Of a stretch of DNA of 41,349 nt, positions 5,328-41,349 are shown one piece after another. This DNA is from Acidobacteriota bacterium. Its GTDB lineage: Bacteria; Acidobacteriota; Holophagae; Thermotomaculales; Thermotomaculaceae. The stretch covers positions 1-41,349 of the forward strand of contig JAADGL010000048.1 of assembly GCA_013152385.1 (NCBI GenBank). Reading direction: 5' to 3'. Within the stretch, counting starts at the first letter, position 1, and each line of letters begins with the position of its first letter. Below the pieces are notes generated by a model, which did not search any database, had not been told where the DNA came from, and worked only from the letters and a program-made list of their open reading frames with translations. A program made the translations under genes and the position numbers.

Positions 5328-5786
5328 TCACTTCACCGGTGCCGGAGCGATGGCCGGTGTCACCGGTTTTGCAGGGGATTTTACCGCTTCTTTTTTCGCG
5401 CAGCAGGGTTTTCTGCAGTCCTTTTTGCATTTCATGGCATCGGGGCAGTTCTTTTTCATTGCCGCCATCTTCTTGCAGCACACTTTTTTGTCCTTCATGG
5501 CATCGGGACAGTTCTTCTTCATTGCCGCCATCTTCTTGCAGCACGCTTTTTTGTCCTTCATGGCGGCGGGGCAGTTCTTCTTCATTGCCGCCATCTTCTT
5601 ACAGCACGCTTTTTTGTCCTTCATGGCGGCGGGACAGTTCTTTTTCATTGCTGTATTCCGGATAACGGCAGTCTGTATTGTCTTGTCTGTTTTCACTTCT
5701 TTGTTTGCTGTAACTTCGTCTCCGGCAACGGCAGAGATGGAAAATACCATAAGTAAAACAAAAATAATTCCGATTATACGTTTCAA
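5328..5786 (-). CDS. Small secreted Lys/Cys-rich protein with 21-residue tandem repeats
   Basis: A 152-residue exported protein that I do not recognise as a named family. The likely start is TTG at 5786, seven bases after GGAGG and immediately before a classic signal peptide (KRIIGIIFVLLMVFSISAVA, cleavage near residue 22). An in-frame ATG at 5825 lies about where the promoter at 5835-5863 would start transcription. The mature protein has four units of 21 residues (46-129) of the form MKKNC-P-x-AMKDKK-x-CCKKMAA. Each of the first three has one single Cys and one Cys pair; the fourth carries extra cysteines. A Lys/Ala/Pro-rich tail follows (KSPAKPVTPAIAPAPVK). It has its own promoter and terminator. 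The regular cysteines and high positive charge suggest metal binding or disulfide-linked structure in the envelope. That is inference. Confidence 0.75.
   Translation of the reverse strand: MKRIIGIIFVLLMVFSISAVAGDEVTANKEVKTDKTIQTAVIRNTAMKKNCPAAMKDKKACCKKMAAMKKNCPAAMKDKKACCKKMAAMKKNCPDAMKDKKVCCKKMAAMKKNCPDAMKCKKDCRKPCCAKKEAVKSPAKPVTPAIAPAPVK
5400..5651 (-). repeat. 63-bp coding tandem repeat, about four units
   Basis: In-frame units of 63 bp encode the 21-residue Cys/Lys repeat. Three units (5463-5651) are nearly identical and the fourth (5400-5462) has diverged. They differ mostly by Ala/Asp and Ala/Val changes, the pattern left by recent slippage or unequal crossing over. Confidence 0.85.
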
Positions 5787-38412: not shown

Positions 38413-38489
38413 TGGTAGCGGGGGTGGGATTTGAACCCACGGCCTCCGGGTTATGAGCCCGACGAGCTACCTGACTGCTCTACCCCGCG
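38413..38489 (-). tRNA. Initiator tRNA-fMet (CAT anticodon)
   Basis: A 77-nt tRNA with an encoded CCA end. Acceptor strands CGCGGGG and CCCCGCT leave the first position as a C-U mismatch, the hallmark of bacterial initiator tRNA. The anticodon stem has three consecutive G-C pairs (GGG-CTCATAA-CCC), which direct it to the P site. The T arm is GTGGG-TTCAAAT-CCCAC. These features distinguish it from elongator Met and from tRNA-Ile2. It is preceded by a consensus promoter and by a tandem 13-bp repeat that overlaps its 5' end. Confidence 0.97.
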
Positions 38490-38508
38490 TCACCGCCCCG
38501 CGTCACCG
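38483..38508 (-). repeat. 13-bp tandem repeat overlapping the tRNA-fMet 5' end
   Basis: CCCCGCGTCACCG occurs twice, head to tail, at 38483-38495 and 38496-38508. The first copy includes the seven bases of the tRNA 5' acceptor strand. The second places an identical CGCGGGG 13 nt upstream, inside the pre-tRNA leader. Confidence 0.9.
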
Positions 38509-38515
38509 GATACTA

Positions 38516-38543
38516 ATTATAGCCATCTCCCCTCCACTGTCAA
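38516..38543 (-). promoter_or_regulatory. Consensus promoter of tRNA-fMet
   Basis: On the minus strand a perfect TTGACA (38538-38543), 16-base spacer and perfect TATAAT (38516-38521). Transcription would start near 38509, giving a 5' leader of about 20 nt before the mature tRNA. Confidence 0.85.
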
Positions 38544-38680: not shown

Positions 38681-38845
38681 TCATCTCCAAAGGCAAAAGA
38701 TGGCACGGATGCTCGTTGTGTCGAAGGCAGGGCAAGTGGAGCGGTTGGCAGTGAAGGCCGGGGCGGGGGCAGAAAAAAGGCACAGAAGGAGAAAAAGAAC
38801 GGTGAGAACGTAGCGGTTCGGTTTGATTCTATTGTTTTTCTTCAT
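38681..38845 (-). CDS. Small ORF with a signal-peptide-like N terminus (relic or leader ORF)
   Basis: A 54-codon ORF starting MKKNNRIKPNRYVL, then a hydrophobic stretch (TVLFLLLCLFSAPAPAFTA) that reads as a signal peptide, then about 20 undistinguished residues. Its first 14 codons resemble those of the small ORF at 41088-41219 (MKEGNRIKPKRYIL), in DNA as well as protein. AGGA lies nine bases before the ATG. It is probably the 5' remnant of an exported-protein gene. The rest of 38490-38680 holds the tRNA promoter and a 51-codon reading (38503-38658, starting MDLPQAMGVGQIIEVPG) in another frame, but no gene I can support. Confidence 0.3.
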   Translation of the reverse strand: MKKNNRIKPNRYVLTVLFLLLCLFSAPAPAFTANRSTCPAFDTTSIRAIFCLWR

Positions 38846-38847
38846 TT

Positions 38848-38888
38848 ACACATCCTGTATTCCCTGAATTCAGGGGAGGTGTTTTTTT
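38848..38888 (+). terminator. Plus-strand terminator-like hairpin
   Basis: ACACATCC (38848-38855) pairs with GGAGGTGT (38875-38882) with one mismatch, enclosing the palindrome CCCTGAATTCAGGG (38862-38875, sharing one base). A seven-T run follows (38882-38888). No plus-strand gene precedes it, so it may stop readthrough towards the accessory genes, or it may be a relic. Confidence 0.45.
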
Positions 38889-38940: not shown

Positions 38941-39218
38941 CTACAAGATAACGTGTGGAACATGCAGAAATTTCAATGCAGCTTGAATCCTGCTCTTGGT
39001 CCTTTCTCGCTCATCTTGAGTCAGATATTGTGCGTTGCCTTCTCCAATATTCCATTCTGTCACCGCTGACAGATAAATAGCCAGGTCTTGTGCCCCAATT
39101 TCCACCTCTATTTCCAGCATAGCTCCATCTTCCATATATTGCATTAAATATCTGGAATTATATGCACTGAGAATCCATCTTCAGATCGAGCATAATTCGG
39201 GCCAAGCTTTTCAAACAT
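38941..39218 (-). pseudogene. Frameshifted small protein, tentatively Imm74-like immunity protein
   Basis: A start at 39218 (ATG with AGGAGG five bases upstream) encodes MFEKLGPNYARSEDGFS and then soon stops in frame. From about 39170 a second frame continues without a stop (SAYNSRYLMQYMEDGAMLEI) to the stop codon at 38941. Joining the two with one missing base gives a continuous protein of about 93 residues. The second part, with EIEVEIG, LAIYLSAVTEW and RIQAALKFLHVP, follows the strand-strand-helix pattern I associate with Imm74 immunity proteins of polymorphic toxin systems; that family call is tentative. The perfect palindrome AAACAAGCTTGTTT (39244-39257) lies upstream of the ribosome binding site. 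It could be a pseudogene or a single sequencing error. The 186 bp up to the next gene contain no other gene. Confidence 0.5.
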
Positions 39219-39404
39219 CAATACCTCCTGAAAATCCATCTATAAACAAGCTTGTTTCATTTCAGAACAGGTTCTTCAGCCGCTCTGAACACCCCTTCAG
39301 GTCAAGTTTTTCATCCAAAAATCCGAATTCCGTTAACTACCATAAACACCAATCGCTTGCAAAGCTTGTCAAGTTTTGGGCATGGTCCCATCTTCTTCTT
39401 TTTT

Positions 39405-40217
39405 TTATCTTTTTCGTTTGTGTTTCTGTTGCATGGCTTCGGCTTCTCTGCGATTCCGATCAATTTCTCGTTGCTCTTTTCGCTTGCGTTCCAGTTTGGC
39501 TTCCATTTTTTCTTTATGCCGCCTCTGTTTCCAATACTCCTCACTCTTTCGCATATCGGGGAAACCATCCATTCGGTCGCCTTTTCCGTCTGTGGAGGCG
39601 AAAATATACCAGTTCTTCATAGGGATCATGGCACGAACGTATGGGATTCTATTGGTTCCCGTTACTTGACGAAGAATCTGGAGTTTTTTTTCAACATCAG
39701 GCGTAAAATAGCCAATCCATTCCAACCCATCAATATAATAAGAGGTATAAGAACAATTAAATTCATTTCCTATTCTTTCCCAAATATCATGCCCATGTTT
39801 TGATTCCCATTCTTTGGCGCGAAACATTAATCTTGTCGAATACCCTCCCCAGCCTTCCATTGGAGAGATCTTTATCTTAATCTTATCTTTCCAGCTCTTT
39901 GGCACGGACTTTTTTTCGTCTTCAAAGTAGGGCAAATAAAACCCTGCTCGCCTGCCCCCTTCCCACCTACAAGAAATCAACCCATTTCTTAATCCATGCT
40001 CGAGAAAAACTTGCAATGTATATTTGAGGTTCTCAATGGGATAATCTAATACCCATCTTGGCCATAAAGTGTCCATCAGAAATGCCAACACAAAGCCAAT
40101 TAGAATGCCGATGAGACCCCATAATAAATATCCAACAACAGGGAAAAGAATATAACACACATAAATTATTACCGAATAGACTTTTGAGCTCTCTGAAACT
40201 CGCAATTCGTACTTCAT
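39405..40217 (-). CDS. Unrecognised membrane protein with a charged C-terminal tail
   Basis: A 270-residue protein with no family that I recognise. Two adjacent transmembrane helices near the N terminus (VYSVIIYVCYILFPVVGYLLW and LIGILIGFVLAFLMDTLW) are followed by a soluble region of about 160 residues, rich in Trp/Tyr/Gly. The last 45 residues are almost entirely Lys/Arg/Glu/Gln (KMEAKLERKRKEQREIDRNR) and probably form a charged coiled coil. Codon use and base composition are more AT-rich than in the core genes. It starts seven bases after the stop of the small ORF at 40225 and has no good Shine-Dalgarno, so it probably relies on translational coupling. It lies downstream of the repeated promoter cassette. 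An envelope-associated accessory or immunity role is speculation. Confidence 0.65.
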   Translation of the reverse strand: MKYELRVSESSKVYSVIIYVCYILFPVVGYLLWGLIGILIGFVLAFLMDTLWPRWVLDYPIENLKYTLQVFLEHGLRNGLISCRWEGGRRAGFYLPYFEDEKKSVPKSWKDKIKIKISPMEGWGGYSTRLMFRAKEWESKHGHDIWERIGNEFNCSYTSYYIDGLEWIGYFTPDVEKKLQILRQVTGTNRIPYVRAMIPMKNWYIFASTDGKGDRMDGFPDMRKSEEYWKQRRHKEKMEAKLERKRKEQREIDRNRREAEAMQQKHKRKR

Positions 40218-40224
40218 GAATCAA

Positions 40225-40362
40225 TCACCACTCAAAACATATTTCTGAACAACTTGGCATATGTGACCTTACCCCATTTTCTGTACCAGTATCCATGAGA
40301 GTACCACGGTTGATAACTCCAAAACGGGTTTGTATGTTCAAGGACGTCCTGCCATCCTTCAT
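40225..40362 (-). CDS. Small ORF behind the repeated promoter (copy B)
   Basis: A 45-codon ORF, MKDGRTSLNIQTRFGVINRG onward, ending FEW. The ATG is preceded by AGAGGA and lies at the same place relative to the repeat as the start of the small ORF at 41219. Its stop is seven bases before the 270-residue gene, so it may be a leader peptide that couples translation. An overlapping frame (40232-40399, 55 codons, beginning MKINEISPRGSVNEGW) is an alternative. That ATG, however, sits at the predicted transcription start and would be leaderless. I cannot decide between them by eye. Confidence 0.35.
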   Translation of the reverse strand: MKDGRTSLNIQTRFGVINRGTLMDTGTENGVRSHMPSCSEICFEW

Positions 40363-40492
40363 TTACACTTCCTCTTGGTGAAATCTCATTTATTTTCATG
40401 GAAATTATTATATCTTCTAGTGTGGGGAATTGCCAGCGGGAAATGCGGTTGATTATTCAATCGAACATTCCCCTTTGACAGAATTTTTTTAG
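40357..40492 (-). repeat. Accessory promoter/leader repeat, copy B
   Basis: About 136 bp that align base for base with 41214-41349, with roughly four fifths of positions identical by eye. The best-conserved part contains the TATAAT promoter and the segment up to the ribosome binding site and start codon of the small ORF. Confidence 0.8.
40407..40436 (-). promoter_or_regulatory. Promoter inside repeat copy B
   Basis: On the minus strand CTGGCA (40431-40436), an 18-base spacer and perfect TATAAT (40407-40412). Transcription would start near 40400, about 38 nt before the small-ORF ATG at 40362. Confidence 0.55.
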
Positions 40493-40554
40493 TAATGTGA
40501 CCCCAGAATTTTCCCAGATCTTTCAAATTTTTACTGCTGGCTTTCTGCATAGAA

Positions 40555-41085
40555 TCATTTAATTTCATTTGGATGATACCACTTCGGTAGAATTGGTATA
40601 GTCGTTCCACGATAATTTTCCAGATTAGGAAGTCTGTCTTGAATTCTGTTAACTACAAGCATTCTTCTTTCGTCATTTGAAAGACTGTCCCAATACTCAT
40701 GTTTAACCTTGGGAGGTTCTGCTTCAGCGTACTTCGGAGGTTCCGTTGGATCACAGCCGAAGTCACACGATTCACATTTGGGACACCTAAATATTTCAGA
40801 AATGCGATATTCACTTCCATCTGGAGCCAAATCACATAAAGATCCAAATATTTCAAAAAAAATATCAACCTTTTGCATTTCATCCAGTTCCAATCCTACT
40901 ACAATCTTTTTAACAAGTGCTGACACTTCATCATACATTGGATCTTCATCATAATAAAAAAGCGCGGGCTTAAATGTCCGTTCACTCAACAAAAGTCTTG
41001 TCACGTCATCATTTCGGTTGCTTAGCATTTCCGTTTTGAATCCACAGGTTTCACATTCACCTCGAAATAGTAAATATTTGCTCAT
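40555..41085 (-). CDS. Unrecognised Cys-rich (zinc-ribbon-like) protein
   Basis: A 176-residue soluble protein that I cannot assign to a family. Cysteines come in two groups that could bind zinc together: C11 and C14 (ECETCGFKTEM), and C101, C104, C107 and C111 (CPKCESCDFGC). The middle is acidic and helical; an amphipathic tail (EYWDSLSNDERRMLVVNRIQDRLP) is followed by a Pro-rich end. GAGG, lying in the end of the preceding small ORF, is its ribosome binding site, and only two bases separate the two reading frames. Composition is AT-rich like its neighbours. The position behind the repeated promoter suggests an independently acquired cassette. Confidence 0.65.
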   Translation of the reverse strand: MSKYLLFRGECETCGFKTEMLSNRNDDVTRLLLSERTFKPALFYYDEDPMYDEVSALVKKIVVGLELDEMQKVDIFFEIFGSLCDLAPDGSEYRISEIFRCPKCESCDFGCDPTEPPKYAEAEPPKVKHEYWDSLSNDERRMLVVNRIQDRLPNLENYRGTTIPILPKWYHPNEIK

Positions 41086-41087
41086 TT

Positions 41088-41219
41088 CTACCTCGCTGGG
41101 ACAACCATTTGTGGGATTAGAATTTGATCAAAATCCGCGAGAATAGCATAATTGTTTCCCACTCCCCTTAAGTTTGGAAGGATATAGCGCTTCGGTTTGA
41201 TTCTATTTCCTTCCTTCAT
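41088..41219 (-). CDS. Small ORF behind the repeated promoter (copy C)
   Basis: A 43-codon ORF, MKEGNRIKPKRYILPNLRGV onward, ending MVVPAR. It starts behind AAGGA, about 38 nt after the predicted transcription start, and ends two bases before the 176-residue gene. Its end supplies that gene's ribosome binding site. The first 14 residues resemble those of the ORF at 38681-38845. It could be a leader peptide or a genuine small protein; the clean amino acid composition (LRGVGNNYAILADFDQILIP) favours real coding. Confidence 0.5.
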   Translation of the reverse strand: MKEGNRIKPKRYILPNLRGVGNNYAILADFDQILIPQMVVPAR

Positions 41220-41349
41220 CCATACTTCCTTTCAGTGAAATTCCATTTATTTTCGTGGAAATTATTATATCTTCTGATGCAAAGAATTACCAACGGAAAA
41301 TGTAGCTGATTATTCGATTAGAAATATTTTCTTTAACAGAATTTTTGAA
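41214..41349 (-). repeat. Accessory promoter/leader repeat, copy C
   Basis: The partner of 40357-40492, reaching the right edge of the window and so possibly continuing beyond it. It contains a TATAAT promoter (41264-41293), a ribosome binding site and the ATG of the small ORF at 41219. The proximal 45-50 bp (41185-41235) also match 38810-38858, a third, shorter copy. Confidence 0.8.
41264..41293 (-). promoter_or_regulatory. Promoter inside repeat copy C
   Basis: On the minus strand TTGGTA (41288-41293), an 18-base spacer and perfect TATAAT (41264-41269). The same spacing and -10 are kept in copy B although the surrounding sequence has diverged, which supports function. Confidence 0.6.

What the first reader, a model, noticed from the sequence alone, without database searches (positions are those of the whole stretch)
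40225..41349. Repeated cassette: promoter + leader + small ORF + unrelated accessory gene
Two diverged copies of a 136-bp segment (40357-40492 and 41214-41349) each carry, on the minus strand, an 18-bp-spaced TATAAT promoter, a leader of about 38 nt, a Shine-Dalgarno and an ATG opening a 43-45 codon ORF. That ORF ends 2-7 bases before a larger gene. The promoter and start region are conserved while the small-ORF bodies and downstream genes (176 and 270 residues) are unrelated. A third partial copy at 38810-38858 precedes another ORF with a similar first 14 codons. This looks like a cassette system in which different accessory genes are swapped behind a common expression unit. The coupling geometry and the cassette idea are inference.
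Basis: partly seen in the sequence, partly recalled or inferred. Interest (0 to 1): 0.68.

Follow-up and report, generated by a model that had tools for sequence, protein, structure and literature searches.

The report
Mobile promoter repeat beside decayed toxin genes
The repeated stretch is a small, probably transposable piece of DNA, scattered at about eight places in this bacterium's genome, that carries a promoter-like signal and often sits in front of leftover toxin-island genes; the tiny ORFs it opens look like by-products, not a designed cassette system.

Summary
The repeat is real: two copies 77-79% identical, with the stated promoter, Shine-Dalgarno, ATG and ORF geometry. The window is a whole contig and copy 2 is cut by its end. 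The genome holds six good copies (two here) plus a 59-bp fragment; among 60 other genomes only one congener has a clear copy. The unit is larger than 136 bp. Its most complete copies are about 251 bp with inverted ends (AATTCCGGGGACA...ATTACYAA), and the same end lies upstream of RAYT/Y1-transposase genes in sister genomes. It is best read as a non-autonomous MITE/REPIN-like element. Its -35, -10, SD and ATG are more conserved than the rest, so promoter activity is plausible but unproven. The small ORFs are not conserved genes. One is the first 14 codons of an Rhs/YD-repeat toxin gene plus unrelated sequence. The other runs into a second dispersed repeat and shows no coding constraint. The 'third copy' is an Rhs signal-peptide remnant. 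Several copies lie in decayed Rhs loci, but others sit before a nitrilase, in the atp upstream region, or before no co-directional gene. The multi-copy expression-like unit is supported; a gene-swapping cassette system is not. New member of a known kind, moderate-to-low interest.

The parts
40357..40513 (-). Dispersed element, copy C1a: left end through promoter, leader, SD and start codon; its 3' half is replaced by another repeat
   Evidence: Sequence-model hit 123.5 bits for 40357-40510; alignment of 7 copies
40489..40510 (-). Left terminal sequence AATTCTGGGGTCACATTACTAA, RAYT/REP-type end
   Evidence: Pattern search: 2 mismatches to AATTCCGGGGACACATTACYAA
41208..41349 (-). Dispersed element, copy C1b, truncated by the contig end; closest copy is C60 (87%)
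   Evidence: contig length 41349
40407..40436 (-). Promoter-like site CTGGCA-18-TATAAT of copy C1a
   Evidence: conserved in the alignment
41264..41293 (-). Promoter-like site TTGGTA-18-TATAAT of copy C1b
   Evidence: conserved in the alignment
40360..40373 (-). SD AGGAAGT and ATG of copy C1a
   Evidence: Sequence; SD and ATG conserved in 6 of 7 aligned copies
41217..41230 (-). SD AGGAAGT and ATG of copy C1b
   Evidence: Sequence
40264..40330 (-). Second, independent dispersed repeat ('tail B', ends CAGAAAATGGGGTAAGGTCA) forming about half of the 45-codon ORF
   Evidence: Further matches without the promoter element in G000 (C11 twice, C31, C21, C32, partial in C63 and C18), G002 (3), G001 (2), G003 (1, short)
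40225..40362 (-). 45-codon ORF, judged not a conserved gene
   Evidence: no coding constraint in any frame against the C58 homologue; ATG absent there
41088..41219 (-). 43-codon ORF: first 14 codons (MKEGNRIKPKRYIL) match an Rhs/YD-repeat protein N-terminus, the rest unrelated; truncated gene start
   Evidence: tblastn 79% over 14 aa to the G002 Rhs start; the G002 gene follows the same element
38681..38845 (-).
   Evidence: 43% over 49 aa, E 4e-7, to the N-terminus of the G002:C27 Rhs protein, which has PF05593 RHS repeats
40555..41085 (-). 176-aa gene, no family match; possibly an orphan immunity/accessory gene (inference)
   Evidence: No Pfam/NCBIfam/PADLOC match, no supported PDB match; no plasmid or viral relative
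39405..40217 (-). 270-aa gene, hydrophobic N-terminus, no family match; possibly an orphan immunity/accessory gene (inference)
   Evidence: No Pfam/NCBIfam/PADLOC match, no supported PDB match; no viral relative

Best explanation
The segment is a copy of a dispersed, non-autonomous transposable repeat of the MITE/REPIN kind, about 250 bp when complete, whose inverted ends match the sequence upstream of RAYT (Y1) transposase genes in the same genus. Inside it lies a constitutive-looking promoter, followed by SD and ATG, pointing towards its 3' end. Copies landed in or beside Rhs (polymorphic toxin) loci that later decayed, and at a few unrelated intergenic sites. In the window both copies have lost their 3' halves: one is joined to the first codons of a vanished Rhs gene, the other to a second dispersed repeat. 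The 43-45 codon ORFs are by-products of these joints. The promoters probably transcribe the downstream 176-aa and 270-aa genes, possibly with some translational coupling through the short ORF. Shown: repeat family, inverted ends, RAYT link of the ends, Rhs origin of one ORF start, lack of ORF conservation. Inferred: mobility by a RAYT, promoter activity, immunity/accessory role of the downstream genes.
For: Six good copies in the genome plus a 59-bp core fragment, and one in a congener (congener contig JAADJC010000007.1). C60 and C66 copies are 252 and 251 bp with terminal inverted repeats (1 and 0 of 1000 shuffles as good); the C66 copy folds end to end. The same end lies upstream of a MARIARVIAPGVPHHIV-type Y1 transposase start in G003 and, in partly degraded form, G001 and G002. 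The congener copy directly precedes an Rhs/YD gene whose start matches codons 1-14 of the 43-codon ORF. C38 and C66 copies are followed by an Rhs-core remnant or sequence related to its lead-in. The C66:304-362 fragment sits upstream of the atp genes; the three congeners lack it there but keep a TTTAC-type promoter. Hexamers, SD and ATG average 0.89 pair identity against 0.66 elsewhere (2 of 20000 random column sets). Small ORF without coding constraint.
Against: No target-site duplication or empty site was shown for a complete copy. The inverted ends are clear in only two copies, weak in C38 (61 of 1000 shuffles), and only the left end is present in C1a and C58. Copies are 11-36% diverged, so any movement is old. 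Only one Y1 transposase match was found in the own genome, and its flank was not shown to match the element. No transcript data. The conservation test ignores relatedness of copies.
Confidence: 0.68

Rival explanations
1. The repeat is the 5' control region of Rhs genes, multiplied only as Rhs loci were duplicated and decayed; no transposition of its own.
For: The congener copy lies directly before an Rhs gene; C1b continues into Rhs codons; C1c is an Rhs start; the SD-ATG GGAAGTRCCAATGAAG is shared with Rhs starts.
Against: Near-complete copies with inverted ends at C60 (before a nitrilase) and C66; a 59-bp fragment before the atp genes; the Rhs gene in G002:C27 has no element in front; the ends match RAYT leader sequence.
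Confidence: 0.2
2. One reading: a cassette system in which unrelated accessory genes are exchanged behind a fixed promoter-leader-small-ORF unit, with the small ORF coupling translation.
For: Unrelated genes follow the unit at C1a, C1b, C38 and C66, co-directionally and close; promoter, SD and ATG are conserved.
Against: Small ORF neither conserved nor constrained; C58 has no ATG and no co-directional gene; a paralogue of the C38 gene at C31 stands behind a different repeat; the sequence after the ATG belongs to at least three unrelated tails.
Confidence: 0.08
3. Only a lineage-typical promoter sequence is shared, not a homologous element.
For: An IS transposase promoter at C2:657-750 gives a weak model hit through its -10 region.
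Against: 77-87% identity over 110-139 bp, far beyond the hexamers, and shared ends.
Confidence: 0.02

Closest known systems
Correia elements (CREE/NEMIS) of Neisseria
   Same: Small dispersed intergenic repeats with terminal inverted repeats and sigma70-like promoters able to drive neighbouring genes (PMC10969869, PMC2229807)
   Different: Correia elements are about 105-155 bp with other ends and target-site duplication; here about 250 bp, ends of RAYT type, SD and ATG included, few copies, no duplication shown
REPINs / BIMEs with RAYT (TnpA-REP) transposases
   Same: Two inverted REP-like ends; the same end lies beside RAYT genes in the genus (PMC3116915)
   Different: About 250 bp with a promoter-bearing interior, few copies, and the ends were not shown to be palindromic REPs
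Orphan toxin/immunity modules of Rhs and CDI loci
   Same: Fragments of Rhs genes next to unrelated small genes (PMC3150448); Rhs-core remnants in this genome
   Different: In the published E. coli EC93 CDI case the orphans are co-transcribed from upstream; here each small gene may have its own repeat-borne promoter. Immunity function is untested

Membership tests
MITE (miniature inverted-repeat transposable element) | Short (about 100-400 bp), non-coding, dispersed in several copies | tested here: met
   251-252 bp complete copies; six good copies plus a fragment in this genome
MITE (miniature inverted-repeat transposable element) | Terminal inverted repeats | tested here: met
   C66 22-23 bp and C60 13 bp inverted ends, 0 and 1 of 1000 shuffles as good; C38 weak
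MITE (miniature inverted-repeat transposable element) | Target-site duplication or empty site | tested here: inconclusive
   No obvious duplication in the flanks of C60, C66, C38; the atp upstream region of three congeners lacks the 59-bp fragment, but that is a partial copy in a diverged stretch
MITE (miniature inverted-repeat transposable element) | Ends shared with an autonomous transposase gene | tested here: inconclusive
   Same end upstream of a Y1-transposase N-terminus in G003 and of degraded ones in G001 and G002; no intact transposase with these ends shown in the own genome
REPIN / RAYT | Two inverted palindromic REPs matching the flank of a RAYT gene | tested here: inconclusive
   Inverted RAYT-type ends and end-to-end folding (z -1.96), but palindromic REP structure not established
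Rhs orphan toxin/immunity locus | Rhs gene fragments (signal peptide or core) next to the genes | tested here: met
   Rhs N-terminal remnants at 38681-38845 and 41178-41219; core remnant beside the C38 copy
Rhs orphan toxin/immunity locus | Downstream gene is an immunity protein | tested here: inconclusive
   No family match for the 176-aa and 270-aa proteins
   Unrelated bodies, 6 nonsynonymous to 1 synonymous against C58, ATG missing in C58

The most novel reading that the evidence does not exclude
A RAYT-linked MITE has been co-opted as a portable promoter-SD-start module that keeps orphan Rhs immunity/accessory genes expressed after their toxin genes are lost, so that mobile repeats maintain an immunity repertoire.
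Probability: 0.12. Interest if true: 0.6.

Novelty: new member of a known kind. Interest (0 to 1): 0.32.

Why it matters
If the promoter is active, this adds an Acidobacteriota example of promoter-carrying miniature elements and shows one way in which genes stranded in decayed polymorphic-toxin islands could keep a promoter. It also shows how conserved promoter-SD-ATG units in a repeat can look like a designed cassette.

Tried and rejected
Rfam scan of the window: only a tRNA, so no known leader RNA. Consensus folding of the element gave a weak structure with little covariation (-0.28), so a structured leader or riboswitch was dropped. A DNA pattern scan of GTDB r220 gave one true hit, the congener; the other four look like chance matches in coding DNA. 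Plasmid and viral searches for the 176-aa protein, and a viral search for the 270-aa protein, found nothing. The atp promoter as origin of the repeat was rejected: congeners keep a different proximal promoter and lack the fragment. C38 and C66 downstream genes were suspected relatives but do not align. The tail-B repeat does not fold stably.

Full report
OBSERVATION. The two minus-strand copies are one direct-repeat family (79% over 110 nt ungapped; 77% over 138). Each has a TATAAT with an 18-bp spacer to CTGGCA or TTGGTA, SD AGGAAGT, and an ATG opening a 45- or 43-codon ORF that ends 7 or 2 bases before a 270-aa or 176-aa gene. The window is an entire contig, and copy 2 stops at its last base, which is what assembly breaks at repeats look like.

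COPIES. In the own genome (2.57 Mb, 69 contigs) a sequence model built from seven aligned copies (six from this genome, one from a congener) finds C1:40357-40510, C1:41214-41347, C66:2337-2489, C60:23617-23767, C58:1175-1323, C38:56669-56779 and a short core at C66:304-362. Of 60 other genomes, only congener G002 has a clear copy by BLAST (C112; contig JAADJC010000007.1, an Acidobacteriota MAG). The model's weaker hits are of other kinds: C2:657 is the promoter of an IS transposase fragment, and G001:C36 shares little more than the SD/ATG. From genome sizes and relatives I would guess class Holophagae, near Thermotomaculum, but this was not tested.

THE UNIT IS LONGER THAN 136 bp. C60, C66 and C38 share a further ~100 bp after the ATG. 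C60 and C66 begin AATTCCGGGGACAGATT(G/A)CTAA and end with its inverse (TIR alignment 1 and 0 of 1000 shuffles as good); the C66 strand folds end to end. A search with this end in the four congeneric genomes hit 12 places, with no hits for the reversed control. In G003 it stands upstream of the start of a Y1/RAYT transposase (MARIARVIAPGVPHHIVQRGN); G001 and G002 have partly degraded versions of the same arrangement. Naming these as RAYT starts rests on my knowledge of the family; the Y1 profile was run only on the own genome. The element is thus best read as a RAYT-linked MITE. I found no target-site duplication, and the own genome has one Y1 match whose flank was not shown to fit.

WHERE COPIES SIT. 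C1b (window) continues into MKEGNRIKPKRYIL. The G002 copy directly precedes an Rhs/YD gene starting MKESNKIKPKRFILKAFLFFL; the ORF that follows in another frame carries the TIGR03696 core domain, so that gene looks frame-shifted or rearranged. A longer G002 homologue starts MKTRSDQKFKFFILTAIFLLL and has RHS repeats. C38 is followed by an Rhs-core remnant, and C66 by sequence related to the lead-in of such remnants. C58 lies after a DUF7587-containing ORF and before a gene on the other strand. C60 precedes a nitrilase. The C66:304 fragment lies upstream of the atp genes, where the congeners have only a proximal TTTAC-type promoter (my reading of the sequences).

THE SMALL ORFs. After the ATG three unrelated tails occur: type A (C38, C66, C60), type B (C1a, C58) and the Rhs start (C1b, G002). 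Tail B is itself a dispersed repeat with other matches in all four congeneric genomes, none beside the promoter element apart from C1a and C58. There is no sign of a conserved peptide.

FUNCTION. Hexamers, SD and ATGAAG average 0.89 pairwise identity against 0.66 for other columns (2 of 20000 random sets reach this; relatedness of copies is not corrected). Of the seven aligned copies six point at a co-directional gene, as does the atp fragment. Both facts fit an outward promoter, as shown for Correia elements (PMC10969869). Whether it is active here is unknown. The downstream genes in the window have no family. By position in decayed Rhs loci they may be orphan immunity or accessory genes, as described for Rhs/CDI loci (PMC3150448); this is inference. 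The C38 gene has a 46%-identical paralogue at C31 behind tail B instead, and the family is absent from five relatives searched, which speaks against a fixed unit-plus-gene cassette.

VERDICT. A real, multi-copy, promoter-like, probably mobile repeat; not a demonstrated cassette system. New member of a known kind.

Noticed in passing
window 40264-40330 and loci L115, L117-L120, L109, L113: A second dispersed repeat ending CAGAAAATGGGGTAAGGTCA, several copies near contig ends; in G002:C76 it interrupts a Y1 transposase-like ORF, and at C21 it directly abuts the ATG of a 183-aa gene with a hydrophobic N-terminus.
   Followed up: partly
window 5431-5651: Tandem repeat of a 63-bp unit, 3.5 copies, 94% matches; 63 is divisible by 3, so possibly a repeat inside a protein.
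   Followed up: no
G000 C20, C25, C38, C52, C55, C56, C60: Seven Rhs-core matches in the genome, several at contig ends, with shared lead-in sequence: a set of decayed or orphan Rhs modules.
   Followed up: partly
window 38941-39239: Two adjacent short ORFs (67 and 31 aa) in different frames look like one frame-shifted small gene between the 270-aa gene and the Rhs remnant; no supported family match for either.
   Followed up: partly
window 38483-38543: Perfect TTGACA-16-TATAAT on the minus strand (38543-38516) just upstream of the tRNA at 38416-38489, and a perfect 13-bp direct duplication CCCCGCGTCACCG at the tRNA's 5' end.
   Followed up: no
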